Shown here one piece after another: positions 1-64,000 of a DNA stretch of 64,000 bases. The DNA lies in the NCBI GenBank assembly GCA_001695595.3, contig MBPM02000079.1:62001-126000 (forward strand). Reading direction: 5' to 3'. The position numbers and the translations under genes are program-made. Source of the stretch: Plasmopara viticola. Its lineage: Eukaryota; Oomycota; Peronosporomycetes; Peronosporales; Peronosporaceae. Under the pieces are notes generated by a model. That model saw nothing but the letters and a program-made list of their open reading frames with translations, was not told the DNA's origin and ran no database searches. Each line of letters opens with the position of its first letter. Within the stretch, counting starts at the first letter, position 1.

Positions 1-3000
1 ACATTGCTGCCAACGGTGTAGGTGGGGCCACGTCGTCGTCGTCACTGTCATCAGGAGCTTGTGCAACAGATCGCTCCATATCAGCAATGACGTCATCGAG
101 ACCTGAAGAAGAAGTGGACGCCAAAAGTGCGCGATCGAACGTCTCGCGAGACACATAAGGCCGGCAGCAACCGCGAAGTCGCTTTGTGACCTCATATACG
201 TCCTCTCCTGGTAGAAAAACCATCGTTTTGCGCAAAAATGGCCGGAGAAGCGGACTTAAAAAGACGTTGGCGTCCACACTGCGCAATTTTAACGCTAATT
301 CTCCCATCAACTTAAGCACAGCATGGCGAATCCACCAGCTTGGATGTAACAGTAGCGAGCACGTCATGCGAGCCTTTTCCACCAATGTACTAATTTTCTT
401 TTGAAACAGTCCAAGCTGACACAAACTAGAAAGACACTCCACTGCTTTGGTAATTACGATTTCTTGTACATCAAAAAGAGCCTGCTCAATGCAAGGCAAA
501 ATGTTGTGCTCAACGGCCACGGGCCCTACAAAAGAGCATACGCCAACAATATAGTCAAAGAATGCACCACGAAGTTCCCAATCTGGATCATTCAAAAAGG
601 TGATCAGCTGTGGCAAAACCACATCCAATGTACGTTCTTGGCCGAAAAACACACAAAGCCTTGTAATGTCGACGAGGAGAGCACGCTTGACCAGCGATGA
701 TGAAGCTTTTTGATCAGGAGTTGTTAGTTGAATCACAAATCGCGATATCATCTTGTGCAGCACACTCAATTCCTTGTCAAAACTGCTAGACGCCATGTAC
801 ATCGTACTTGAAGCAGAATCGTTACTTCGATTGGACAGTGTGGCCAGCGATGCGGCAGAGCCTGACGATGTCAGCGTCTTCTGTTTCATTGCGTGCGCAA
901 GTTCCAAGAAACGACGACTTGTCTCTGCTAATTGGGGCAAGCATTCAGCAAATGTAATACGCACCAACTCATCCGGATCCGACTGAAAGGGGACCATGGC
1001 GGGCAGCACGTATTGTGGAAAGACTGAGGCGTCAGCAAGGGGGAAAGATAGCACCAGAGATAGCAAATACGTAATTGTGCGAAGAGCTAAGGCTCGTACA
1101 GTCGCACTTGGATCGTCAATCACTTCAAGAAGATAAGGAATCAGACGCTGAAGTCGGGCTTCGTCGCTTGTAAACTGACCCAGCGCACGAATCAGGTACA
1201 ACGCGGTCAATTTCGATTCGGGAACTTGAACATGCCGTAGACTGGAGCAAATTAGCGACAAGACTATAACGATACCATTACGATCATGCGGCCATGGCAC
1301 GCTTGCAGGATATGACGGTGGCTTCATCCGTCGCGTCTTAGCTTTGTGCAGTGGAAGTGAAGACGAACTCCCTTTGGTCAATGATCCGCGCATATGCATT
1401 TCGTCATCATCTTTGGCTTCCGCGTCCTCAACTGTTTCTTCATCCAAATGACTCGTTGTTGACACGCGCGAGTAGTCAAGAAGTAGCAAATTGTTTTTTT
1501 TTTGAGTAAGAGCATTAAACTGATCGTGAAGCTTCTCAATTTTTTTCTTTTGCAGAGTGGAGCTTAGTCCGCGCATGTCATTTTCTTTGTCTTTTACCTT
1601 TTGTAGCTTTGTGATAGCAACGTTGTCTCGTTCGGCCTTGTGTTTACCATGTTTCGCGGGAATATTCTGGTATAATTCTTCAAGTACACGCTGCGCAACA
1701 TAATTTTGTTGTACGCTTCCTGAAGCAGTTGTTAAGCGGTCGGAGCCGTAGCCTTCCTTAAGGCGCAACTTAAAAAACTCTTCTCCTTCAGTGTCTTCAA
1801 CTCCCGCGATCTCACGCACTAACCGACCGTAGTACTTGCAAACAAGACGAATACGTGCATCCGGTACTTTTCCTCCTCGACTTAGCACCAGCACAAGAAA
1901 TCGAAATAAAAAGTTGTCGAAATATGTTGGAAATAGACCGTTCAAACTAGTATATTTTGCAAGATATCCGCTTGCCGAATTTCGGGCGTTCGGATCCAAC
2001 TGTAGCATGTGTAAAAGCAACTCTTCGAGATTTGGATCCCCCACCTTCTTAAGTTGATGCCTCAGCGCCTCTGCATTCCCGGTACGATATTTGAGTAGTG
2101 TCGGAAGATCAAATAGTGGCTTGCCACCTAAGAAAAGCTCAGCGATTACACATCCAGCCGAAAATATATCCATGGATTCTAATAAATTCCCTTCACGACG
2201 CGAACGAGAATAAGATGAAGGTGCACTTCCACTTGATGTGGTTGACGGCGGCGTTTGCATGGAAGTTCCTGCCATGGCTCCACTGCCCATACCCATCGCT
2301 GAAATCTGCTTATCCACTTCTTCTACAGTTACGTCACTATCTGCCATTTTTGAGAGCATTATTGCAGCATCGGGCGTTTTAACAGCACTGACACCCCCAG
2401 GCCCAGAAGTTGGTCCAGACGATCCACCAGAGGAAGCGTACCCTTTACCGTAAAACCTTTCTGGCGCCACGCTGCACCCACGTCGAGTGGCGTCAATGGC
2501 ACAAAAGTAATAGTTATAATCTGCAGGGTCGTCTTCAGGGATATAGGTCGGTTTAAACGGTGCAAAATCCGTCAGAAAGACCCAGTTCCAGCTCGTGACC
2601 ATAACATTTTCTTGCTTAATATCTCCGTGGCAAATGCCCTTTGCATGACTCTGCTCCAGCGCCCTCAATATCTGAAAAGCGATCCACTTTTTCTCCACCA
2701 TTGTAAGAAACGGTCTTGAGCAGATGCGGTCGTACAAATTCGAGGCAAAATATTGGCGCACCATAAATGCCACATTGTATTTATTGGATAATTGAAAGTC
2801 TGCGTAAGGAATGACATTAGGTTGCTGTTCGACCGAGAAAGCAAGTACAAGACGACGCAGTGCCACCTCAGCACTTGTTAACGACTCTCGTTCATCGTAT
2901 TTGCGATAGATTTTCACGACCAAATGTCCCTCGTCACACTTGCACGAGATGCTCTTGAGAAACTTGCCGTCTCCAATTAAACTGCCAAACATCATATCCA

Positions 3001-3094
3001 TCGAGCGCGGCGTATAGTCCATGAGAAAGGTACGGTACTGCGACGCGCTGTCTAGCACGCTCTGAGGCTGTGCACGCGGCGCGGCGTTACCCAT
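1..3094 (-). CDS. VPS15: VPS15 / PI3-kinase regulatory subunit 4 (5' part, runs off the window)
   Basis: One uninterrupted frame runs from the ATG at 3094 to base 1 (about 1031 codons), with no stop and no need for introns. The start gives MGNAAPR; Gly2 fits the N-myristoylation site of VPS15. The kinase-like domain (about residues 35-330) has VVKIY, HGDIKQENVM (H156, D158), a TSWNW stretch and LTDFAPFKP at D176, where DFG is replaced by DFA as in known VPS15 proteins. APERF lies near 212 and MDIFSAGCVIAELF near 305, separated by a Gly/Ser-rich insert. Residues 400-1031 resemble the HEAT-repeat region, including an acidic low-complexity linker. The C-terminal WD40 propeller expected for the family would lie outside the window. 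Known role: scaffold and regulator of the VPS34 class III PI3-kinase at endosomes and autophagosomes. It matches the family's VPS34-partner rather than a generic kinase. Confidence 0.95.
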   Translation of the reverse strand, partial: MGNAAPRAQPQSVLDSASQYRTFLMDYTPRSMDMMFGSLIGDGKFLKSISCKCDEGHLVVKIYRKYDERESLTSAEVALRRLVLAFSVEQQPNVIPYADFQLSNKYNVAFMVRQYFASNLYDRICSRPFLTMVEKKWIAFQILRALEQSHAKGICHGDIKQENVMVTSWNWVFLTDFAPFKPTYIPEDDPADYNYYFCAIDATRRGCSVAPERFYGKGYASSGGSSGPTSGPGGVSAVKTPDAAIMLSKMADSDVTVEEVDKQISAMGMGSGAMAGTSMQTPPSTTSSGSAPSSYSRSRREGNLLESMDIFSAGCVIAELFLGGKPLFDLPTLLKYRTGNAEALRHQLKKVGDPNLEELLLHMLQLDPNARNSASGYLAKYTSLNGLFPTYFDNFLFRFLVLVLSRGGKVPDARIRLVCKYYGRLVREIAGVEDTEGEEFFKLRLKEGYGSDRLTTASGSVQQNYVAQRVLEELYQNIPAKHGKHKAERDNVAITKLQKVKDKENDMRGLSSTLQKKKIEKLHDQFNALTQKKNNLLLLDYSRVSTTSHLDEETVEDAEAKDDDEMHMRGSLTKGSSSSLPLHKAKTRRMKPPSYPASVPWPHDRNGIVIVLSLICSSLRHVQVPESKLTALYLIRALGQFTSDEARLQRLIPYLLEVIDDPSATVRALALRTITYLLSLVLSFPLADASVFPQYVLPAMVPFQSDPDELVRITFAECLPQLAETSRRFLELAHAMKQKTLTSSGSAASLATLSNRSNDSASSTMYMASSSFDKELSVLHKMISRFVIQLTTPDQKASSSLVKRALLVDITRLCVFFGQERTLDVVLPQLITFLNDPDWELRGAFFDYIVGVCSFVGPVAVEHNILPCIEQALFDVQEIVITKAVECLSSLCQLGLFQKKISTLVEKARMTCSLLLHPSWWIRHAVLKLMGELALKLRSVDANVFLSPLLRPFLRKTMVFLPGEDVYEVTKRLRGCCRPYVSRETFDRALLASTSSSGLDDVIADMERSVAQAPDDSDDDDVAPPTPLAAM

Positions 3095-3430
3095 GCTGAT
3101 AACTTGCTTTGCAATAGGGTCTGACGTAAACGTATGTCGCCCAGCTATTGGCTTTAAAAAGTCTTACAAACTTAACATTGAAATTCCTAATATGCTTACT
3201 AAGGGGTTGATCAAGATTTTTCTCGTGAAAAAGGGAGGATTTTTGTACCTTTCCAGAATTTGGTGAAAGTGGTTAACAGATCTTCAACATGATTTTTCAG
3301 AGCGGAATATATCGCCTTAATAACCTACCAGAAATTTTACGATATAATATTAAAACTCTCCTCTTAAAACGTTTATTCAAATATGTGGTATGGATGTTAC
3401 TTGTGCTGTATTGAAAGATAGACGATATGA
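3095..3430. other. Intergenic, upstream of VPS15
   Basis: A+T-rich 5' flank of VPS15. I see no gene and no recognisable oomycete initiator motif. It probably holds the VPS15 promoter and 5' UTR. Confidence 0.5.
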
Positions 3431-3439
3431 TTTCCTCGC

Positions 3440-4349
3440 TTTAGTGTCCTTTAGGCTCGACGAACGAATCCATGGCGATACAAAAAGCGGTGAAGCAGCC
3501 AAAAAAGCAAGTCATAGACCACATCGCACCAGTTCTTAATATTCCAAGTACGATGATTTAGGAGAAGGGAAAAATTAGCTACAGCACATCTGTTAACATG
3601 TTTTCTTAGTTTGGGAAAGCGAAAAGTATGCCGTGTGGCATGTTGTCAACCGCGAGGTGACTCCGACGTGTGTTGACCCTCGTGCCTCGGACGAATATGT
3701 CAGGACAAGCAACATTGCTTTTGGATTGATGCTGCTCCATATGGATGCGGACTATCACCACCTTGTTGATGACTGCGAGGAAGCGTGGGTTGCGTGGGCG
3801 CGTATTAAGCCGCTGTACGGCGGATCGCAAAAGGCTGGTCGCATCTACTTGAAGCGACAACTCTTTAGCATGGAGATGGCCGAAGGTGGTAATGTCTTGC
3901 ATCACTGCAATGAAGTCCTCAATACCAGCGCAAAGCTTTCCAGTATCGGCGCGAAAATGGAGGACGAAGACGTTGCAATCTGCCTTTTGCGAAGTCTGCC
4001 CAAGAGCTACGAGAATGTCGTGCTCAACTTGGAGATCAGCAATGCGGAGTTGAGGACTCAGGATGTGGTTAAAGTGCTGACGAATGAGCACATTAAGCGA
4101 CAAGGGTCGAAAACCACGACAGTCAAGACTGAGGAAGTGGCAAAGGCGTTCAGCGCAGAGCGAGAAAATCGCCAGTGCGCATACTGCGGAAAATTGGGGC
4201 ACTCGGCGGAGCGGTGCTGGACCAAGCAGAAGGATGAGAATCGGAATGCTCGACGCGGCGGCCAAGCTCGTGGACGCGGAGCAAACAATGTTCACTATCG
4301 ACCAAGCGGGAGCAACCACAGAAGGTGTATATATTTTAAAGTTAAATAA
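3440..4349 (+). pseudogene. Ty1/copia gag remnant (UBN2-like region plus CCHC knuckle)
   Basis: An open stretch at about 3615-4349 reads as the gag part of a copia polyprotein. It has an [11 protein letters not shown] motif, a Tyr-Leu-Lys-Arg-Gln-Leu segment, [10 protein letters not shown] and a zinc knuckle [14 protein letters not shown] (C-X2-C-X4-H-X4-C) followed by an Arg/Gly-rich tail. Upstream, at 3440-3600, related coding traces (Arg-Leu-Asp, Trp-Arg-Tyr-Lys) sit in other frames, so the N-terminus is broken. The frame stops at 4349 and no protease, integrase or reverse transcriptase follows. In copia elements gag forms the particle that packages the RNA; this copy cannot be autonomous. 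A 270-codon frame on the opposite strand (4418-3606) is its shadow. Confidence 0.85.
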
Positions 4350-35285: not shown

Positions 35286-35452
35286 ATGGGTTTAAAGACT
35301 TGCAAGACTTCAAAGGAGCCAACAAGGCACGTGTCCCGAAAGATTGCAAGTTGGTTGAAATTCTTCGCTCGACATAATTTTCACGTTGAGTTCAAGCCTG
35401 GTCAACTCAATGTACTTATCAGTCCGCATTTAAACAGGCCAAATAATGAATT
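35286..35452 (+). pseudogene. Ty3/gypsy RNase H fragment, cut by a SINE-like insertion
   Basis: The frame gives SRKIASWLKFFARHNFHVEFKPGQLNVL, the hallmark segment at the end of gypsy reverse transcriptase-RNase H (cf. the family consensus ...W...Y.F...KPG..N..ADALSR). The following residues align loosely with the ADALSRRP stretch. The coding trace then stops at the 13-bp target duplication of the inserted repeat at 35453. No integrase is present downstream, so this is a dead fragment. Confidence 0.8.
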
Positions 35453-35774
35453 TTTCGGAAAAGGTTGGGGTGACGCCCTCCTTCCAAGCGCGGGGGCTAA
35501 ATGCTCGCGCGCTTCGGGCAGGTGCTCTCGGGCATCTGCAGGTCTCTAACGAGTCTCACCCTCGACGCGACGGTCTCCAGCACCAGGGCGCCACCTGGGC
35601 ACTTACCAAGTCAGAAGTACACAAAATAATGGAAGACCCTCACGGCCTCGGTGCTGGCTGCACTGCCCGCCGAACGAGACTCGACGTATGCGGACACCAC
35701 TCTATGCCGTGGACTAGCCATAGAGCCTAGCACGTGCATAACTTGGCAACGCGATAACGTAATACAATACAATA
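35453..35774 (+). mobile_element. SINE-like repeat, copy A (full length, with target-site duplication)
   Basis: A G+C-rich 322-bp element with a simple 3' tail of AATAC units is flanked by identical 13-bp direct repeats, CAAATAATGAATT, at 35440-35452 and 35775-35787. Two further copies lie at 37798-38123 and 42573-42900. A short simple tail plus a variable-sequence target duplication are hallmarks of LINE-dependent retroposition. I see no clear pol III A/B boxes, so its origin is unknown. A ~94-codon frame across the element is conserved in copy C but broken in copy B, so it is probably incidental. Confidence 0.85.
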
Positions 35775-35787
35775 CAAATAATGAATT

Positions 35788-37785
35788 AACAAAAATTTGT
35801 TATATCAGGGGGAGTAATAAAAGCGCTTAATAATATTATTTTTAAATAAAAATTTTTCTTAAATTAATAATTATTTTAATTTTATTTTTTCTTCTTTTAT
35901 TTATATTTTTTTAATTTTTATTTATTTCTTTATTGTTTTTTTTTTCGTATTTAATAATATTTATAAAAGGATACCAATCTAAATCATTCGATGTGATCCT
36001 TTATTGCAGGCAAAGAAACACAAGTCAAGCGTTTAATTCTTAATGGCATGGCTATGCGTGGATAGACGGTATGCCATGATCCGGCCGATACAATCCGAAT
36101 AGCTGGTACGAAAAAATACTGTTGAGGGCACAGAACGCTCAATTTGGCAGTTCTATATACCTATCTTCGCCGTTAGAACAACAGTAATTTCATTTTGTGA
36201 CATAATATTTGATAATCCTACGATCAAAATAGACAAATAACACGTTGGGCCACCAATATGTCGTGGACTCTCGGGCTCCAAAGTGCCCAAGTGGGCTGTC
36301 AAGTATGTAAAGCTTGCGGACGCAAAGGGCGCGGAAGCCATACGATGCATTTCATTTGTGTGAACTTCATAACAAGTGACGCCTTGTCATACACAGGGTA
36401 CATTCATTGAGCAGCTCTAAATTTTCTGGACTGAAGCGAGACGGATCGCTCATATCCGTCCTTATCGAGTTGCAGTAACGCGCAAACGATAACGTGGTCG
36501 GTATTGCCGCAAATTGTTTTGACGGCTTTCTTCTTCCGGTGATTCTGAAGGCTTTTCTCAATGCTATTCATAGCAATCTCTTCCACTATCCTTTCCAATA
36601 GATCAGACAAAGGCTTCGCGAGATAGCACTTTTCTCGTGCAAGTAATCGTCAAGGTAAATAGTTCTTCCTTTATATAAACAAAGAAAAATGGCAAAGATA
36701 AGTCGTTCTCCTATACCGAGACACAACGATAGGCGTTTTGGTGATACATAGTAAGTAAGCCTGGTGGTGGGTTAAAGCCACCATTCATTATACCGAGTAA
36801 CCATGCACTCTTTATCTTTTTCCGCAGGGATGTGGCTATATTATCAAGAAGGTCCGATGTATTTACCCAGTAAGGCATTTACGTAAATTGCCACCATCTA
36901 GCCCTTGACCTTCTTAGCGAGTTGCCTTCTGGTAAAAAGTCAGTAGTGGGCACCAAAAAGAGCTTTACGAGTGAAGAAGATACTCATCACGACTTTTATG
37001 TCGGTGTGCGCGCAATGAAGTGCTTTGATATTGAGTTATTAGTTCGGACCGTGGTTCACGAAGTGCTTGAAATCCGTATTGTGGCGGTGATGTCCTCATA
37101 CTTTCTTTCCAAAAACCAAAAGATCCATTGGTAATGTCTAGAATAGTGTCCTAATATAATTATTATTCCGGTCTGGGTCGACGAACCCAGCCGATGTATT
37201 AAATCAGTGAGGACAACGCTTGTTCAGCCCCACAGAAATTAGTGAATTCGCGTTCGCGTGACAGACCATAATTATCTTTGACTTTGTGCGCCACTTGTCC
37301 GTTATTACAATGTAGAAGTAAATAGTCATAGTAATTTTTGTAGTCGAAGTCTTTATCACATTTGTAATCATAGCGTATGCGTAGTCTTAGTCGCAAGTAT
37401 ATTCGTAGTCGTATATATGTCGTGACAAACGACTATACTATCATACCACGTCTGCTTCTTCCATGTCTTCTGCGACAATTCATCGAAGTGTGCTTGGCAT
37501 AGTGACGGCTATGACATTGGCTTACTCTCTGCCGGCTATGATGCAATGTCCGCGGGCTTGCTAACTTAATGGAGGCTCTAAGCATGGTTGCTGACGAAGG
37601 CCGCACAAGTTGAAATCTCCTCGATGTAAATAACTTGACTGCAATGAAGTTAAAGTGCACGTAAATACAGCGTCGAATATGTCAAGTGCCACTTGTATAG
37701 CGAAATTTCCGTAAAGCTTGGTTGTAGTAGAAGGAAGTCTACAACTTCCCAAGAAGAACGACCATTAATTAGGTCTTGGAAAGAC
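35788..37785. other. A+T-rich low-complexity block and intergenic DNA
   Basis: 35790-35965 is extremely A+T-rich, with long T runs. Later, 37315-37430 holds imperfect GTAGTC/TCGTAG-type simple repeats. A 70-codon frame at 36922-37134 (+) has no recognised domain. No gene was called. Confidence 0.5.
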
Positions 37786-37797
37786 TCAAGTTTAAAA

Positions 37798-38123
37798 TGT
37801 AATGTAATGTATTACGTTATCGCGTTGCCAAGTTATGCACGTGCTAGGCTCAGTCTGGCTAGTCCACGGCATAGAGTGGTGTCCGCATACGTCGAGTCTC
37901 GTTCGGCGGGCAGTGCAGCCAGCACCGAGGTCTTGAGGGTCTTCCATTAGTTTGTTTATCTCTGACTTGGTAAGAGCCCAGGTGGCGCCCGGTGCTGGAG
38001 ACCGTCGCGTCGAGGGTGAGACTCGTTAGAGACCTGCAGATGCCCGAGAGCACCTGCCCGAAGCGCGCGAGCATTTAGCCCCCGCGCTTGGAAGGAAGGC
38101 GTCACCCCAACCTTTTCCAAGCT
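37798..38123 (-). mobile_element. SINE-like repeat, copy B
   Basis: This copy is in inverse orientation to copy A. Its tail (seen on the plus strand as TAATG units at 37797-37815) abuts a left target duplication TCAAGTTTAAAA at 37786-37797, and the identical 12 bases recur at 38124-38135. Relative to copies A and C it has small changes, for example a CAGTCTGGC insertion-like difference near 37850 and a loss in the GGCGCC...GGTGC region near 37985. It ends about 200 bp upstream of the DUS2-like start codon, so it may lie in or near that gene's promoter. Confidence 0.85.
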
Positions 38124-38337
38124 TCAAGTTTAAAAGTTTTTCTATAATGAGTTCCAAAGGATGTGGTCTAGCAAACATTTAGTTAGGCTTCAATCCTTTC
38201 GGAGATTTGAGTAGGGTTAACCATCCTTATAAAGCTCTTTACAACAAAAGCTGAGCTTTATGTAACGGCCCGTCTTAGAATTTGTCTTTAAAATGTGTGG
38301 ACCTAATTCTTTAACTGAATTGAATAAGTACAAAACG

Positions 38338-40084
38338 ATGTCAGAGCTCTACGAGAACAAAGTATGCTTGTCTCCTATGGTCCGCTCGGTATGTGCCACA
38401 GCGTAAAGTGCTCCAACAGCCTATTTCATTACCATTGCTATTTGTATAAGGGCACTCTACCATTGCGACTACTGTCGCTGCGCTATGGTGCCGACCTCGT
38501 GTACGGCGAAGAGATTGTCGACAAACGCATTGTCTCGGCTGTTCGTGTACCAAATGGTACTATTGGCTGCTAGCTTAGCTTATGGATTACCAGTTGACGT
38601 CCTATTCATGGTTTTTATCGATCTTGTAGAGGTCGTTAATGCAGTGGACTTTATGAGTCGCGACGGTGACTCGGTAGTATTTCGCACATGTCCAGAAGAG
38701 TCCGAAAAAGTGATTTTTCAGATCGGGACAGCCGATGCGGTCCTGGCACTAAAGGCGGCTGAGGTCGTGTGAGTCGTTTTGATAGGCACAAACTTTGATC
38801 CGAAAGCAGACTTTTAATCGTGTTGATTGTCTACAAATTGTAGAGCACGTGACGTAGCCGCTGTAGACATCAATATGGGCTGTCCCAAACATTTTTCTAT
38901 TCAGGGAGGGATGGGAGCAGCACTTTTACAAAAGCCTCAAGTGGCTTGCGATGTAGGCGAAAGGCTGATAAAAATTTTGTATCACGTGTGGCAGCTGATA
39001 GGTCTTTGTGTATATGGATAAAGATCATGAAAACACTGCGGCGAAATCTTAATATTCCAGTGTCATGCAAGATTCGTCTTCTTCCAGAAACTCAAGACAC
39101 CGTACGATACGTTACTTTTACTGCAATGATAAGTATCATTTAGTTAAAACCCTTCTTTGATAGATTGATTTGGCAAGACGCCTTGTAGATGCTGGAGCTT
39201 GTGCACTTGGTGTGCACATGCGGCAAGTTCATCAGCGTCCTCATGACAAAGCGAGCTGGGATAGGTTGGCGCCCGTAGTATCGGCTCTATCTGTTCCCGT
39301 GCTCGCGAACGGCGACGTGTTTATGTATGAGGACATGCAAAAGCTTCGAGAGATGTCTAGTGCATCTTCCTTTCTCATTGCTCGCGGGGCACTAGCCAAT
39401 GCATCAATATTTCGAAAAGAAGGGCTTTTGCCACTTGATCAAGTAGTGCGTGAGTACCTGATGGCTGCTGCAGAAACGGACAATGTATTTCAAAACACAA
39501 AATACAACGTGATGCGTATGATTCCAAACTCGCTGGCGGACGCGCACGCTAGTGGCAACAAATTTGGGTATGCAAAGGATGCCCATGTCGTCACTGTTAC
39601 TGAAGTGGCTGCGACAAAGAATGTCTTGCAACTGTACTCGCTGTGGAATTTGCAGAGTTGTTACCACCAGTACCAAAATCGATTTTGTGCAAAGGCGGCT
39701 GCAGTGAAAAGCAACCATTTAATCGATATTTTGAACACTCTGCCGCCTGCAAGCGATCGCTGCGCCAATGATGTATCAATGAAAGCCGAGTGTCGAGAAA
39801 GTCTTACCAGCAAGCCTGAATTTTACTGCGAGACTTGCAACAAGCAACTACTAAGTGAGCAAGACGTCAAATTGCATTATAAGGGTCGAAAACACAAAAA
39901 TGTGTTGCGTCGTCAAACCTCCGCCACCATCTCGAAGTTTATGGCCAAAACACAGCTGGAACAAAACCTTGCGACGGATGACGCTACACGACCAAACATT
40001 ACAGAGAATGGGGTGGAGTTTCGACCATGCAAAGACGAAAGCAAGCGTGATTTTAAACGCACCAAACTTATTACAACAGAATAG
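38338..40084 (+). CDS. tRNA dihydrouridine synthase, DUS2-like, with C-terminal C2H2 zinc finger
   Basis: Six exons: 38338-38388, 38451-38556, 38630-38768, 38844-38952, 39024-39101 and 39164-40084. Introns are 62, 73, 75, 71 and 62 nt, all GT-AG, and frame is continuous for 467 aa. Spliced motifs follow the DUS2 order: LSPMVRSGTLPLRLL (FMN site), YGADLVYGEEIVD, VVFRTCPEE, VIFQIGTADA, DINMGCPKHFSIQGGMGAALL with catalytic Cys112, PVSCKIRLLPE, and PVLANGDV...ASSFLIARGAL. The enzyme reduces uridine in the tRNA D-loop (position 20 for DUS2) using FMN and NAD(P)H. Instead of the dsRNA-binding domain of animal DUS2, the C-terminus carries a matrin/U1-type finger (C383, C386, H399, H405). A SINE-like copy ends 203 bp upstream. 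Confidence 0.93.
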
Positions 40085-40497
40085 CCAAGAGCCGTGTTGC
40101 ATCTTTCAAGCATCAAAAGGTGATAGCAAACGCCTACTTTTGGCTTATTTTTTCTGCCTACCAACTGCATGCTTAGATAAGCGTATTCTGGTAAAGTGTG
40201 ACGTAGAGGGGCGTCTATAACAATTAGTAAAAAATAGAGTTTGAAAATTGCATGTTGCTTAATCAACACCTGACATTACAACAACATTGTAAAATTCTGG
40301 CTGCTTCCAAACAGTAACAAAAACACTACATCCTCGCAAGAATCAGCTAAAAGTCGGGCCAGCCCTTACATAATTAAGAATCGCTCTCGCTGGCATCATT
40401 TGCGCCGCGACTTTAAGCCTGCGAGTACCGCGTGAAACACTTCTTGTTAGGTACTCCCAAATCAATTTTTTTGACAAAAGTGAAGCTTCATTGAAAG
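40085..40497. other. Convergent intergenic region (DUS2-like and MOK-like 3' ends)
   Basis: 413 bp between two converging genes. It may contain a third exon of the MOK-like gene (coding end at 40396 if an additional 90-nt intron at 40419-40508 is used). Otherwise it holds 3' UTRs. Confidence 0.5.
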
Positions 40498-41966
40498 CTA
40501 GCTCCTACCTGAGACGTCCGTATAGGCTGCAGAGATGGCAATGATTCTCTTAGGTCGCGCGGATGCAATATTTTTCTTGAACGTTATGCCGGTCACGTGT
40601 TTGCGAGCCTTAATGTCATGACACGTAGATCTGTTTGTGCTGCCTCCGTTTGTGAGTCCAACTTTCGATGCTTTGTTCAAAACTCCATGATACAATGTCC
40701 CTCCTCCTCCACTACCGTCGCCAATTTTGTTACTATTGCTATTTTTGCCGTAGGTATGCTTGCTCACTTTGCTTGTGGAAAAGCTTACAACGTTGTTGAT
40801 GGGCGGTAATTCATCTTCACTTGCGTCGCATGCACCGTACTCCTTGGTGTCAGTCGTAGCCTGCTGTCCGTGTAATCTAAATTGATTAACCAAGTTAAAA
40901 TTGATGCCAAAAAGAAGTTTCAGCAAGACTGGCGATGTGCAACTCACCCAATTTGAAGTGACGGTAGTGGCGATTTTTCGTCAACATTTTCAATACCCTT
41001 GCGCCGTTTGTAAGCTGGAGGCTGTTTCTGCGATTGACATGCAAGTTGCTGTTGCTGCTGCTGTGTCCGTAGTGTTGCCTCTTCAAATTCACGTAATTCT
41101 CGAAAATACTCATGCCGCAACGCCTCTCGTGCATTCATGCGTTTACTCGGGTCGTACTCCAGCATTTTCTGCATAAGGTCAATAGCTGCAGGAGATGCGT
41201 GTGGAATAAGTTTGGCAATGTTAGTTCCATCCTCTTTGGCAAAATCAAAGTCAACATGTGCAGCGCCTTTGCGCTTAAAAATCTCGAGCACGTCCAAGGG
41301 CGGAGTACCTAAGACTTTGTGAATGCGGTGGATTTGATCAAGCTCGTTGGAGCCTGGAAATAGCGGGTATAGCGATGTAATTTCAAAGAAAACACAGCCA
41401 GCGCCCCACATATCCATTTCTGGCCCATAGTAGCCATCAGTAAGCAAGCACTCTGGTGCACGATACCATCGCGTGGAAATGTATTCGGTATACGGCTGCT
41501 TCGAGTAAATACCACGACACGACCCAAAATCAGCTAGCTTGAGCTTGCTGTTGTTTTCCACTAATATATTTTCCGGTTTAATGTCACGGTGAAAAATTCC
41601 TTTGTTGTGCATGTGATCGAGCGACTTCACGAGTTGAAACATGAGCGATTGCACGAGTTCAGGCTTAAGGTAATGTTGTCGACCACGAATCATCTCGTAC
41701 AGATTGGCATCCATCAACTCAAAAACAAGTGCAAGACGACCCGATGGCTGGTCGTACAGCACTTCTTCCAGCTTCACAATGTGCTGATGTGGAGAAAGTC
41801 TTCGCAGCGCCTGGATCTCGCGAAGGTTATTCACTTGATCAATGCTTTCAAAATGATTCTTCATGCACTTGATAGCGTGAAACTTGCTGTCCTTGACGTT
41901 TTGGGCCTTGAGCACCTCGGAGAAAGTGCCTTCGCCTTTTTTGGCCACTAATCTATACTTTCGCAT
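40498..41966 (-). CDS. MOK-like (RCK/MAK family) serine/threonine kinase
   Basis: Exon 1 41966-40948, intron 40947-40877 (71 nt, GTGAGT to TTTAG) and exon 2 40876-40498 give 465 aa. The kinase domain (4-287) has GEGTFSEV, K33, the NNLREIQALRRL helix, HRDIKPEN (126-133), DFGSC (146-150) and the TEY activation motif at 160-162 in YSKQPYTEYISTRWYRAPE. This is closer to MOK than to MAK/ICK (which have TDY). The tail is Gln-rich then basic, with no domain. MOK-family kinases are linked to cilia and flagella in other eukaryotes. Without splicing the protein would end at PSLQIG. A second intron (40419-40508, with a CTAAC branch-like site) could give an alternative C-terminus ending at 40396. Confidence 0.92.
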
Positions 41967-42561
41967 CGCGATTGTCGGAGATCGTGGGCAAGTTCGAAGA
42001 CAGCGACGCAGGGCTCGATAACTATAATATGAGATCGTATTTATAGATTGCTGCTACTTGTTTAACGGACGGCTCAACGCAAAGCTCGTAGTCATGATGA
42101 GGATTATGATACTAGTATCGAAAGTTTATTTGTTTCAATTTTCACTCACCTTCTATCGCAATAGGTCTATTGTACATGTCCTCAACGAATTACCCTATGT
42201 CTTACACATTATGATGATTCGCCCGACCTACCTTAGTGCTTTATATTTGTTTTCCACCACTCTCTTGTTAGTGGTGCAAGCTTTTTGGCTCCAGGGTCTA
42301 ACATGCTAGAAATATTGCACACTACAGTATGTGTCATGGACTTTTTAGAGCTTTGAAACTCAGGCAGGTAGCAATTTGCAGCTCGAACGTAGATCAAGAA
42401 CCTTAACTCACACTTTCTTTACGCAGCGAGCTACTGAGAACTTGAAGTTGATCGCAAAATTTGCGAGGCACTCGGCAGTCTTTCCGTTACAAAAAGCCTA
42501 AAGCTGGCTTTCCGTATGAAGAACCCCGTTAAAATTTTGACCGGTATGCAAGTCGACAAAT
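41967..42561. promoter_or_regulatory. MOK-like upstream region
   Basis: About 600 bp holds the presumed promoter, then low-complexity intergenic DNA up to the target duplication of SINE-like copy C. An 83-codon hydrophobic plus-strand frame at 42058-42309 has no family signal. Confidence 0.4.
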
Positions 42562-42572
42562 TTTCGAAGTAT

Positions 42573-42900
42573 TGTATTGTATTGTATTACGTTATCGCGT
42601 TGCCAAGTTATGCACGTGCTAGGCTCTATGGCTAGTCCACGGCATAGAGTGGTGTCCGCATACGTCGAGTCTCGTTCGGCGGGCAGTGCAGCCAGCACCG
42701 AGGCCGTGAGGGTCTTCCATTATTTTGTGTACTTCTGACTTGGTAAGAGCCCAGGTGGCGCCCTGGTGCTGGAGACCGTCGCGTCGAGGGTGAGACTCGT
42801 TAGAGACCTGCAGATGCCCGAGAGCACCTGCCCGAAGCGCGCGAGCATTTAGTCCCCGCGCTTGGAAGGAGGGCGTCACCCCAACCTTTTCCGAAAAAAA
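42573..42900 (-). mobile_element. SINE-like repeat, copy C
   Basis: Nearly identical to copy A in opposite orientation, with a tail of GTATT units on the plus strand (42571-42590). Direct repeats TTTCGAAGTAT flank it at 42562-42572 and 42901-42911 (11 bp, extendable with one mismatch). The clean duplications and high similarity to copy A suggest recent activity. Confidence 0.85.
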
Positions 42901-42911
42901 TTTCGAAGTAT

Positions 42912-49584: not shown

Positions 49585-51227
49585 ATGTCCTCGCCCTCGC
49601 CCAAGCGTTCCGACAGCGCGGGCCTGACGCGCTATCGTTCGCTTCACGTTATGCTAGGCGTGCTTATGGTGTTTGTTCTGGGTAAATTGCTCTTAGAGAT
49701 GTCCTTCGTGTTCATGGATGGCGAAGTAGAAATACACCAGGATGTATCTCTTGTGTTAGCTGCCGTCGCCGAGTCCTCTCTCAGCACTTCAACTCGTACC
49801 GCTGACAAATTTTACCCGGACGAAGTGTTTACCATTGACTGGAGTCAGTATATTAAAAAAAGTGACATTTTGCACCAAGCGGCATTGCACCGGGCTTGCT
49901 TGCGTCACAAGACGAGTGTCATCCCGTGGACTTATGGGCAGTCCGGAAAAAACGAGATTTGGAATTTCATGCAACTTGTGAATGAATCTTACTCGCAGCG
50001 ACTTCAGAAGCTACGACGATGTCCTGATTTTGACGTTTTCGTACCCGAACGAATTCGAAATTATGGATATTGCGAGGACGCTGCGGCTTACACGAAATGT
50101 ACGTTACCGAAATACATCGTGCAATATTTCTTAATAACAAGCACTTTTTTGCTCCAAGTCCTTAAAGCAAGGATGCTACCTTACTGGGCGCTGGACCCGA
50201 CAAGAGCAAGCGGTGTATCGATTAATTATCACGACTTGTGTCCGAACACACCCGTGATTTTTTTTAATCACTATTCGGATGGACTCCTTGATCTTCCAAA
50301 CTGGCCAGCAAGTAACCAGTTTACTTGATGCCGAATATTGAGATGTTTGAACTCGAGAGTGAGCACTTTTGGAGAGCAGATGTCATTTTGTGCAAGACAG
50401 CACTGTGTGTTGACTATTTGAACAAGTGGCACAAACAAGAGGGCAATCCTAGAGGTACTAAAGTACTTTACACACGCCACACGACGTCCAATTTGGCATT
50501 GGTAGGCAAGAGCCAATTAAATGCAGATGGAAAAGCGACAGGCCTAGAAAAAGATTTTGCAAATGTTTCGTTTGTACACACGGCGGGCAGCAGTACCAGT
50601 AAAGGAACGCGGCAAATGCTGGGTTGCTGGTTGAGTCGCCCCGACTTGCCGCGATTGGATGTGTACGTCTCTCAAAGTATCTACGACGACTTTAAGAGAC
50701 GGAGATATCTGAGGTGGATTAACAATAGTTCCAACATCTTTCTCCATACTGGACAAATGGAACCCGCCGCTTTTGGACAGCTCATTTCGAAGTCGGCGTA
50801 CTTTATGTGTCCGAGTTTACACGAGGGATACGGACATTACATTAACCAGGCGCGATCGTCGCGTGCCTTGATTGTTACCACGGACATCGCGCCCATGAAC
50901 GAGTTGATCACGCCGACGTCCGGTGCACTGATTCCAGTGAGAAAGACGGCGCTCGAGGATCAATTCTTAGGTGGCACGTCTATGAAAAAGCATGCGCTGA
51001 GAGGCGTCGAGGGATATTATGCCGTCTTTCAGCCCGTCGCTTTGTGCGACACCGTGACAACTCTGCTCAACACAACAATAGAAGAACGCGTGAAGCGCGC
51101 TGACAAGGCTTTGCAGCAGTACTACTTCGACACGGTCTTCTTTGCACACAGCATGAAAAATCTGCGCGCGATAGTGCAAACTCACCATCTTCATAACCTT
51201 TTGCGGCACGACGGTGATGATAAGTAG
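49585..51227 (+). pseudogene. Type II membrane glycosyltransferase paralogue, frameshifted
   Basis: The ATG at 49585 starts a protein with a signal-anchor (about residues 20-38: VMLGVLMVFVLGKLLLEMS). An intron at 50099-50158 (60 nt, GTACGT to CCAAG) matches the position of the intron in the paralogue at 62244-63972; splicing yields AAAYTKFLKARMLPYW. The frame then breaks at 50316-50318. One base is missing relative to the paralogue, giving PASNQFT and a stop at 50326-50328, while the correct frame resumes as VYLMPNIEMFELE and runs to 51227. The C-terminal part has a glycosyltransferase GT-B-like EGYGHYINQARS motif and a TTDIAPMNELI segment. The single defect could be a true pseudogenising mutation or an assembly error. 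It is a close paralogue of the copy at the right edge, in opposite orientation. Confidence 0.8.
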
Positions 51228-62243: not shown

Positions 62244-63972
62244 TTACAGACCTACGCCGGCATCCACACCGTGTTGGTTCCGGATCCTGCCACGCAAGCT
62301 CGGGTGGCTCTTGGCATAGGAATACGAGCGTAGTGCCTTCATCTTGCGTGCAAAAAAGACGGTATCAAAGTAATATTGCTGCAGCGCTTTGTGCGCCCGT
62401 TGCTCGCGCTCTTGTAGCGTGGAATTTTGCAAGACTGTCATGACCGTATCGCACACGTCGTCGTACTCAAACTTGCCGACGAGGCCCGAGATGTTGCGGA
62501 GGGCAAACGGTCGATTGGAGACGCCCCCCATAAACTGCTCGCCGTACGAAATCACTCGTGCGTGGATGAGCGCCCCAGACGACGGGGTGATCAACTCGTT
62601 CATTGGCGCGGCATTCGTCGTGATGATGAACGCATTGGCCGACCGGGCCTGGTTGATGTAGTGCCCGTAGCCTTCCATCATGCTTGGACACAAGAAGTAC
62701 CGGCCTTGAGCAACGACGTGGCCAAACTCAGTGGCGGACAATCGCCCCGTGTGCAAATAGACGTTTGGACTCTTGGTCAGGCGTGGCCCGTAGTCGGAAA
62801 ACGAGCCATTGTACAATTCCTGGTCCACGTAAAAGTCGAGGCGTGGCAAGTCCGGCTCTCTGAGCCAGCAGTCCAATACTTGGCGCGTGCCTTTTTGAAT
62901 GCTCTTGCCTGCTGTATGGAGGAACGAGACGTTGGCAAACTGCTTTGGCGGCGCCGTAGGGCCTGGATTTGCAGCCAACTCTTTTTGGACCAAGAGGGCC
63001 AAGTTTGTCGTCGTGTGGCGCGTATACACGACACGCGTGTCTCGCGGATTGCCCTCCTGACGAAACCACTTGTTTAAATATCGCGCACAGAGCGCCGTTT
63101 TGCATAAAATGACATTTGCTCGCCAGTAGTGCCTTTCGTTTAGCTCATACATTTCAATATTTGGCATCAGGTACAATGGCTTCGTGCGCGGCCAATCTAG
63201 GGCATCGGGAACTCCCTCCCAATAGTGATTAAAAAAGAGCATGGGGGTATGAGGACATAAGTCATGGTACGTGATACTCCGGTTACGTTTCACGTCCTCA
63301 AACTTTACTTCGAGCACCCATCGAGGCAACATGCGGGACCCTAAAACTGTTGATGAGAATGTCAGTAAAAAGCCAAGAAGCAACTTTAGAATACGTGCTT
63401 GTCGTACATTTTGTATACGCTGCGGCATCTTCGCAATAGCCAAAATTGCGCAAATGATGCGGAAGAAAAAGTTCGACATCCGGACAAACGCGAAGTTTCT
63501 CGAGCAACATGGGGTCACTACGATTTACGATTTCACGTAGCTCTTCAACTCTGTCCTGTCCATTGTGTCCAAATGTCCACGGGATGACACTGTTCTTGTG
63601 CGTCACACACGCTCGATGGAGGGCGTTTTCGTGCAAGAGATCGCTCTCGTCAATGTAGTGACTCCAGTCCACCTCAAATATTTCTTCAGGATAGTAGGAA
63701 GCGTCATTCACAGAGGACTCATTCGAAGAAGCAAGAATTGGCGAAGCTTCTTCTGCTGCATTCAGCAATTGCTGGACTCGATCATCAGGTGTGACGTCTG
63801 ATTTTAAATACGCGACTTCAAAAAGAATGCCACACAGGGTTGCTATCAATACTGCACACAGAAGCAACTGCAACACTACGGGCGGTGCGGGGCGCGACTT
63901 TGCAGTGCTTGCTTCCTTTGTCGATTGCACGACCGAGGTGGTAAAGGCACTTCGTGACACATCAATCGACAT
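62244..63972 (-). CDS. Type II membrane glycosyltransferase, GT-B/GT4-like (intact copy)
   Basis: Exon 1 63972-63408, intron 63407-63347 (61 nt, GTACGA donor, CTGAC branch-like site, CAACAG acceptor) and exon 2 63346-62244 give 555 aa. Without splicing the reading frame breaks, because the 61-nt intron is not a multiple of three. With it the junction AAAYTKFLGSRMLPRW matches the paralogue at 49585. A signal-anchor lies at about residues 30-52 (VLQLLLCAVLIATLCGILFEVAYL). Conserved blocks shared with the paralogue are DWSHYI, GYCEDAAAYTK, YHDLCPHTP, LMPNIEMYEL, RANVILCKTALC, TRHTTTNLAL and EGYGHYINQARS. The last resembles the acceptor/nucleotide-binding motif of GT-B transferases. A Golgi location is expected; substrate unknown. 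The ATG at 63972 is used (the frame opens at a TTG upstream). Confidence 0.88.
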
Positions 63973-64000
63973 GTCCAACGTAGCTGCCCAGTAGAAAGAC
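63973..64000. other. Window edge
   Basis: 28 bases upstream of the glycosyltransferase start codon; too short to interpret. Confidence 0.5.

What the first reader, a model, noticed from the sequence alone, without database searches (positions are those of the whole stretch)
35440..42911. Three full-length copies of one ~325-bp SINE-like family, each with its own target-site duplication
Copies at 35453-35774 (+), 37798-38123 (-) and 42573-42900 (-) share G+C-rich bodies and a pentamer-repeat tail. Their flanking direct repeats are CAAATAATGAATT, TCAAGTTTAAAA and TTTCGAAGTAT, all different, which is strong evidence of independent retroposition. I found no clear A/B boxes, so the origin of the head is unknown.
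Basis: partly seen in the sequence, partly recalled or inferred. Interest (0 to 1): 0.75.

Follow-up and report, generated by a model that had tools for sequence, protein, structure and literature searches.

The report
LINE-derived SINE-like retroposon in downy mildew
Three short repeats in this water-mould genome are stripped-down copies of a longer jumping gene; they kept its two ends, lost nearly all of its middle, and now far outnumber it, very probably by using its copying enzyme.

Summary
Three ~325-bp copies sit at the stated places, each between exact direct repeats of 11-13 bp. Empty sites of related copies show that such repeats are target duplications. The family is large: 1,280 exact matches to its internal joint in the 93-Mb genome.

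The element is not a SINE with a tRNA, 5S or 7SL head. It is an internally deleted derivative (SIDE) of a ~3.19-kb LINE in the same genome: LINE nt 1-136, a 28-bp piece of its coding region (2655-2682), an A-rich linker, then the last 135 coding nt plus a pentamer tail. Five LINE loci have open frames of 1,035 or 1,042 aa with an endonuclease match; two read in full also carry reverse transcriptase. A second, ~1.15-kb derivative is also abundant.

Exact SIDE joints outnumber places that keep the deleted LINE region about 60 to 1. The assembly statistics match Plasmopara viticola. Mobilisation by the LINE enzyme in trans is inferred. SIDEs are known but called rare; the searches listed showed none from oomycetes.

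The parts
35440..35452 (+). copy 1, upstream target-site duplication CAAATAATGAATT (last T shared with element start)
   Evidence: exact repeat
35452..35587 (+). copy 1 head = LINE nt 1-136, 100% identical (49-nt LINE 5'UTR plus start of its ORF)
35588..35615 (+). copy 1 middle piece = LINE nt 2655-2682 (inside the LINE ORF, after the Pfam RT match), 96.4%
35616..35629 (+). copy 1 A-rich linker, no match to the LINE
35630..35762 (+). copy 1 3' part = LINE nt 3044-3178 (last 135 nt of the LINE ORF), 94.8%
35763..35774 (+). copy 1 TACAA pentamer tail (boundary with TSD ambiguous)
   Evidence: as L002
35775..35787 (+). copy 1, downstream target-site duplication
38124..38135 (-). copy 2, target-site duplication at its 5' side
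38119..38123 (-). copy 2 first five bases AGCTT (differs from the TTTTC start of copies 1 and 3)
37987..38118 (-). copy 2 head = LINE nt 6-137, 98.5%
37960..37988 (-). copy 2 middle piece = LINE nt 2655-2683, 100%
37947..37959 (-). copy 2 A-rich linker
37812..37946 (-). copy 2 3' part = LINE nt 3044-3178, 97.0%
37798..37811 (-). copy 2 TACAT pentamer tail (same type as the LINE copies L070 and L071)
37786..37797 (-). copy 2, target-site duplication at its 3' side
42901..42911 (-). copy 3, target-site duplication at its 5' side
42762..42897 (-). copy 3 head = LINE nt 1-136, 99.3% (three extra T at 42898-42900)
42734..42761 (-). copy 3 middle piece = LINE nt 2655-2682, 100%
42720..42733 (-). copy 3 A-rich linker
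42587..42719 (-). copy 3 3' part = LINE nt 3044-3178, 94.8%
42573..42586 (-). copy 3 TACAA pentamer tail
42562..42572 (-). copy 3, target-site duplication at its 3' side

Best explanation
The three repeats are copies of a short internally deleted element (SIDE) made from a ~3.19-kb, single-ORF, APE-endonuclease LINE that still has open-frame copies in the same genome. Shown: the piece-by-piece identity with the LINE, target-site duplications, empty sites, copy numbers, open partner ORFs. Inferred: the element is transcribed from the LINE's own 5' end (nt 1-136 or a part of it); the LINE protein recognises the last ~135 nt plus pentamer tail, nicks the target and copies the RNA by target-primed reverse transcription, giving duplications mostly of 11-13 bp. 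Inferred with less confidence: the deletions arose when the LINE reverse transcriptase jumped between RNA templates, which would explain an A-rich patch at a joint in both derivative families.
For: SIDE = LINE 1-136 + 2655-2682 + linker + 3044-3178. LINE L070/L071, one 1,042-aa ORF each; P0001 (from L071) has Pfam PF03372 at 45-280 and RVT_1 PF00078 at 570-786. Five of 11 PF14529 loci have 1,035- or 1,042-aa open frames, and all five carry the SIDE head at 100%. LINE, 1.15-kb and most SIDE copies share the start TTTTCGG, a pentamer tail and the TSD length. Empty sites. Exact SIDE joint 1,280 times; 3' 23-mer 2,868; head 22-mer 2,437; reversed-pattern controls 0 each. LINE stretch absent from both derivatives: 21 candidates, all scored, 27 pieces. 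Eleven places identical to copy 1 over 322 bases, itself included, so activity is recent. Rfam at E<=10 on copy 1: one lncRNA hit at E 9.2, far below its cut-off. Best A- and B-box scores of copy 3 not above 500 shuffles. The linker varies most: 0.118 against 0.017-0.025 elsewhere, 30 copies.
Against: No transcript, promoter or enzyme assay was possible. The 28-bp internal piece and the linker are not what a single deletion gives. Twelve of 40 SIDE copies and 3 of 20 1.15-kb copies have no flank match of 9 or more bases. Of ten further LINE copies, two lacked a head in the fetched stretch and two had no clear TSD. The breakpoints show no convincing microhomology, and no AATAAA, ATTAAA or A6 lies in the LINE read, so neither the deletion route nor a poly(A) origin of the linker is settled.
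Confidence: 0.92

Rival explanations
1. A true SINE: a Pol III RNA gene fused to a LINE 3' end.
For: Length, copy number, shared LINE 3' end and TSDs are as in SINEs.
Against: The head is 98.5-100% identical to LINE nt 1-136; no tRNA found in the window (bacterial-code ARAGORN); no structured RNA family at E<=10 other than one lncRNA hit at E 9.2; no A/B box above shuffles.
Confidence: 0.04
2. The deletions are ordinary DNA-level deletions (recombination or repair), after which one deleted copy was amplified. This rivals only the template-jump step.
For: Eickbush and Eickbush (PMC3414825, Discussion) call this more likely for R2 SIDEs; the SIDE joins three non-adjacent LINE pieces, which stepwise deletions of a longer derivative can give.
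Against: Extra A-rich bases sit at a joint in both the SIDE and the 1.15-kb family, which simple deletion does not give; no clear microhomology.
Confidence: 0.4
3. Splicing of LINE RNA produced the short forms (as in human SpIREs).
For: Spliced LINE RNAs are a known source of deleted copies (PMC5860796, seen in the listing only).
Against: At none of the three joints (two in the SIDE, one in the 1.15-kb form) does the LINE continue with GT on the left or end in AG on the right.
Confidence: 0.02
4. A 5' self-cleaving HDV-like ribozyme defines the 5' end, as in R2 SIDE and RIME/NARTc.
For: Uniform 5' end TTTTCGG in most copies and a high share of complete copies: 28 of 31 3' ends in the 30 loci chosen by the 3' 23-mer keep a 5' end.
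Against: No HDV family match at E<=10; no perfect 7-bp P1 partner for a start within the first 12 bases of copy 3 and only two weak 6-bp candidates.
Confidence: 0.05

Closest known systems
Persaeus SIDE and its CR1 partner Zenon, Lepidoptera (PMC6740152; abstract, Introduction and Discussion read)
   Same: High-copy non-autonomous element made of LINE 5' end + short centre + LINE 3' end, living beside its partner; central stretch not clearly related to the LINE.
   Different: Partner is a CR1 LINE in insects; here a compact single-ORF LINE of another build in an oomycete. Here the centre holds an identifiable internal LINE piece plus an A-rich linker, the 3' part is coding sequence of the parent, and only about 20 places keep the partner's deleted region.
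[quoted passage not shown] abstract and Discussion read)
   Same: Internally deleted non-LTR element keeping both ends, moved by the partner's enzyme.
   Different: Site-specific in rDNA, 5' ribozyme, cotranscribed with 28S; here dispersed, with variable TSDs, no ribozyme found.
RIME/ingi and NARTc/L1Tc, trypanosomatids (PMC4035085; passages read)
   Same: Short elements with high similarity to the LINE 5' and 3' ends, there explicitly also called SIDE; the passages call L1Tc/NARTc and ingi/RIME the most abundant repeats of their genomes, so abundance alone is not new.
   Different: 77-nt Pr77 promoter/ribozyme; no such match found here.
RTE-clade LINEs such as RTE-1 and SR3 (PMC1291365; passages read)
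   Same: 3.2-3.3 kb, one main ORF of 922-1,066 aa with APE and RT, very short 3'UTR of AT-rich short repeats, TSD 10-12 bp (SR3). That paper also mentions RTE-derived SINEs in molluscs and flatworms.
   Different: No RT tree was made here, so clade membership is untested; the parent here has practically no 3'UTR before the tail.
infSINE families of Phytophthora infestans (Whisson 2005, seen only as cited in PMC3522703 passages)
   Same: Short retroposons in an oomycete.
   Different: infSINEp is described there as tRNA-like; this head is LINE-derived. The other infSINE families could not be compared.

Membership tests
SIDE (short internally deleted element) | 5' end identical to the 5' terminus of a LINE | tested here: met
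   98.5-100% over LINE 1-136 (copy 2: 6-137)
SIDE (short internally deleted element) | 3' end shared with the same LINE | tested here: met
   94.8-97.0% over LINE 3044-3178
SIDE (short internally deleted element) | coding centre removed | tested here: met
   LINE 138-2654 and 2684-3043 absent from the three window copies
SIDE (short internally deleted element) | only the two ends remain | tested here: not met
   a 28-bp internal LINE piece and an A-rich linker lie between them; not a strict requirement, since Persaeus also has a central region
SIDE (short internally deleted element) | autonomous partner in the same genome | tested here: met
   five loci with 1,035/1,042-aa open frames; two read in full. 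Enzyme activity not testable
SIDE (short internally deleted element) | propagated by target-primed reverse transcription | tested here: inconclusive
   TSDs and empty sites fit; no enzyme assay
SINE (strict sense) | head from a Pol III-transcribed RNA gene | tested here: not met
SINE (strict sense) | transcribed by Pol III | not testable with these tools
   needs transcripts; boxes not above shuffles
RTE-clade LINE (for the parent) | about 3.2 kb, single APE+RT ORF, short 3'UTR of short AT-rich repeats, short variable TSD | tested here: met
   criteria from PMC1291365 passages
RTE-clade LINE (for the parent) | RT groups with RTE in a tree | not tested
   no labelled clade references were at hand

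The most novel reading that the evidence does not exclude
A compact oomycete LINE repeatedly produces its own parasites by reverse-transcriptase template jumping that leaves A-rich patches. Because the parent has almost no 3'UTR, the RNA signal that the parasites use lies inside the last 45 codons of the LINE's own protein gene, so the LINE cannot easily change that signal to escape them. This would help explain why only about 20 places keep the partner's deleted region while exact joints of its two derivatives exceed 1,400.
Probability: 0.3. Interest if true: 0.65.

Novelty: new member of a known kind. Interest (0 to 1): 0.5.

Why it matters
SIDEs are described as rare (PMC6740152: fruit flies, Anopheles, Trypanosoma brucei, then Lepidoptera), although the trypanosomatid forms are called abundant in PMC4035085. 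This is a large, recently active family in an oomycete with an open-frame partner LINE present, about a 60-fold excess over places that keep the partner's deleted region, a second larger derivative of the same LINE, and a 3' signal apparently inside coding sequence. It gives a clean system for asking what minimal RNA ends a LINE enzyme needs, how such parasites arise, and how they affect their partner. It also warns that 'SINE' annotation in oomycetes may hide LINE derivatives.

Tried and rejected
Pol III head: Rfam at gathering scores on the window (no match) and at E<=10 on copy 1 (one lncRNA hit at E 9.2); ARAGORN (none; bacterial-code setting); A/B-box scan of copy 3 with 500 shuffles (best A 10 of 12, best B 7 of 11, both reached or exceeded by nearly all shuffles). 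HDV-like ribozyme: and a P1 search, nothing convincing. Splicing: no GT/AG at the joints. Plasmid search for the element: no match, as expected. Which ancestor gave the SIDE, LINE or 1.15-kb form: majority bases of the shared ends do not decide. Clade by named homologues: the named oomycete hits (120 of 171 listed) are 42-62% identical, two named animal hits 35-37%, most others unnamed; the link of the name 'craniofacial development protein 2' to RTE is recalled, and the literature listings did not settle it. PDB sequence matches led by LINE-1 ORF2p do not inform on the clade.

Limits of the counts. Pattern counts are of short strings and include fragments and nested copies. The first-look number for the 1.15-kb form (509) is candidates, of which 40 were scored. 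One search used 38 of 40 SIDE copies and 18 of 20 1.15-kb copies (the rest failed a 3' anchor or length filter). One search left out L001-L008 (copy 1 was put back from the window) and two SIDEs with internal deletions (L015, L021). One of its 31 rows departed by 0.49; one search shows that it is a SIDE with an internal inversion (L064), and the means given in this report are those without it (with it: 0.036, 0.037, 0.138, 0.038).
Full report
WHERE. The window is contig 79, bases 62001-126000, of an assembly of 92,937,831 bases in 358 contigs. Window proteins looked oomycete-like to me by eye. Plasmopara viticola has a published assembly of 92.94 Mb in 358 scaffolds with 44.85% GC (PMC6660063; abstract and found passages; the abstract says 359), which fits these numbers and the window's 42-51% GC. 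The tools name no organism, so this identification is an inference.

OBSERVATION. They align at 93% mean column identity with flanks included. BLAST of the element against the window finds only these three. TSDs are exact and differ. Across 40 SIDE copies (37 outside the window plus the window's three, copy 1 counted as L002), 28 have an exact flank match of 9 or more bases, 20 of them of 11-13; among 1,560 mismatched pairings 30 reach 9. Seven of the 37 had been fetched for identity to copy 1; without them it is 21 of 33. For the 1.15-kb form it is 17 of 20 against 10 of 380.

EMPTY SITES. Joining flanks and searching the held loci gave seven rows that span an insertion point, from five insertions. 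I inspected four pairs: L001 against L049, L014 against a second place in L014 and against L031, and the 1.15-kb insertion of L049 against L001. In each the empty version has one target copy, the insert begins at TTTTC and ends in pentamers. So the direct repeats are target duplications. The two rows in which L040's insertions hit L040 itself, and one further L014-L031 row, were not examined.

FAMILY SIZE. The 23-mer near the 3' end occurs 2,868 times at up to 2 mismatches, the 22-mer of the head 2,437 times at up to 2, the exact SIDE joint (0-1 extra base) 1,280 times, a 26-mer present in the LINE and the 1.15-kb form but not in the SIDE 454 times at up to 2, and the exact A-run joint of the 1.15-kb form 170 times. 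Reversed-pattern controls were 0 in each case. A LINE stretch missing from both derivatives (LINE nt 423-2323) gave 21 first-look candidates, all scored, as 27 matched pieces; 13 are near complete over that stretch and the rest are fragments, some of them parts of one broken copy. Exact SIDE joints to LINE places: about 1,280 to 21, or 60-fold. Eleven places are identical to copy 1 over all 322 bases, the window's own included. Of 31 3' ends in the 30 loci fetched by the 3' 23-mer, 26 are SIDEs with a head, 2 are 1.15-kb copies with a head, and 3 are 5'-truncated; these loci all lie on contig 1.

ORIGIN OF THE HEAD. Locus L035 showed SIDE nt 1-135, 136-163 and 176-318 at three separated places inside a longer element with LINE-like protein pieces. 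A search of the genome with the endonuclease family PF14529 gave 11 loci, of which five had open frames of 1,042 or 1,035 aa; those five carry the SIDE head complete and at 100%, L064 carries it at 99%, and L065 from nt 31. Two were fetched whole: each is about 3.19 kb with one 1,042-aa ORF. The ORF starts at LINE nt 50 and its TAA stop directly abuts the pentamer tail. Pfam finds an endonuclease/exonuclease/phosphatase domain at 45-280 and a reverse transcriptase at 570-786. The best named database proteins are from Phytophthora, Nothophytophthora and Achlya. In window coordinates the SIDE is LINE 1-136, 2655-2682, a 13-14-nt linker and 3044-3178. The linker is A-rich in the copies listed and is the most variable region: 0.118 mean departure from the majority, against 0.022, 0.017 and 0.025 in head, middle piece and 3' part, 30 copies.

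SECOND DERIVATIVE. About 1.15 kb: LINE 1 to about 340, a run of roughly 10-20 A (sometimes interrupted), and LINE 2384 to the end (20 copies printed). Both derivative families therefore keep LINE nt 1-136 and the last ~135 nt, and both carry extra A-rich bases at a joint.

LINE COPIES. Ends of ten more LINE copies were fetched. Eight had a head in the fetched stretch (one of them shifted); six of these have TSDs of 9-16 bases and two have none that is clear; two of ten had no head there. The two LINEs fetched whole have TSDs of 13 and 12. LINE tails are mostly of TACAT type, but two of the ten end in TACAA; I did not check that those two 3' ends belong to the LINE rather than to a SIDE at the same place. 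SIDE copies come with either tail: 29 were classed TACAA and 9 TACAT. Copy 2 of the window is of the TACAT type, copies 1 and 3 of the TACAA type. Nineteen of the 29 TACAA copies share a 2-base deletion that would break the LINE reading frame, which fits an element freed from coding. One search used 38 of 40 SIDE copies, 18 of 20 1.15-kb copies and 12 LINEs (10 of them also with a 5' end).

HOW IT WORKS. The shared ends, common start, pentamer tail, TSDs and open-frame partner make mobilisation by the LINE protein the natural reading. The 5' part kept by both derivatives is the first 136 nt; I infer it carries the start of transcription. In the SIDE the 3' part is 135 nt of what is, in the parent, coding sequence up to the stop codon; I infer that the recognition signal is there or in the tail. 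R2 and R1, the stringent LINEs of PMC3414825, have the signal in the 3'UTR; here there is practically none. How the deletions arose is open: template jumping fits the A-rich joints, DNA-level recombination or repair is the other route; both are discussed for other SIDEs (PMC3414825, PMC6740152 Discussions).

COMPARISON AND NOVELTY. By its anatomy it is a SIDE, a kind described from R2/R1 in Drosophila, RIME/NARTc in trypanosomatids, Ag-Sponge in Anopheles, and Persaeus in Lepidoptera. PMC6740152 calls SIDEs rare and says almost all earlier ones are low in copy number; against that, PMC4035085 calls L1Tc/NARTc and ingi/RIME the most abundant repeats of their genomes, and PMC1291365 mentions RTE-derived SINEs in molluscs and flatworms. 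Searches for SIDE, internally deleted LINE and oomycete or Plasmopara terms (listings only apart from the papers named) showed no oomycete SIDE; most subscription papers are not covered, and the two P. viticola genome papers looked at by term (PMC6660063, PMC5394536) describe repeats only in bulk in the passages seen. The parent meets the structural description of RTE-clade LINEs in PMC1291365, but no tree was made. I therefore file the finding as a new member of a known kind, notable for host group, abundance relative to its partner, an open-frame partner and the coding 3' end.

Noticed in passing
L064 about 2449-2756 (+) (contig 14): A SIDE copy whose inner part (element nt 42-270) is inverted while both ends keep their orientation: an inversion of the kind left by irregular reverse transcription or later rearrangement. 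It lies between a LINE copy and another SIDE.
   Followed up: partly
G000 contig 3, about 548000-553850 (minus strand): Four hits of the 1.15-kb LINE derivative at a constant spacing of 1,794 bases: a tandem array of a larger unit containing it.
   Followed up: no
L066-L069 (contigs 71, 38, 29, 5): A second LINE-like family with an endonuclease match and, by eye in L067 and L068, reverse-transcriptase-like sequence; BLAST of the SIDE finds nothing at these four loci.
   Followed up: partly
protein P0007 (Phytophthora megakarya): A database protein named 'RxLR effector protein' has precomputed reverse transcriptase and endonuclease domains and is a relative of this LINE: probably a misnamed transposon protein.
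   Followed up: no
L059-L063: Open LINE frames come as 1,042 aa (three loci) and 1,035 aa (two loci). The seven-codon difference equals the distance to an earlier in-frame TAA seen in the derivatives, but I did not read the 1,035-aa ends directly.
   Followed up: partly
window 3633-4349 (+): ORF with a CCHC zinc-knuckle motif, resembling a Copia-type Gag by eye.
   Followed up: no
window 49585-51227 (+) and 62244-63978 (-): Two related pairs of ORFs (similar sequences by eye): apparently a duplicated gene family, each split over two ORFs.
   Followed up: no
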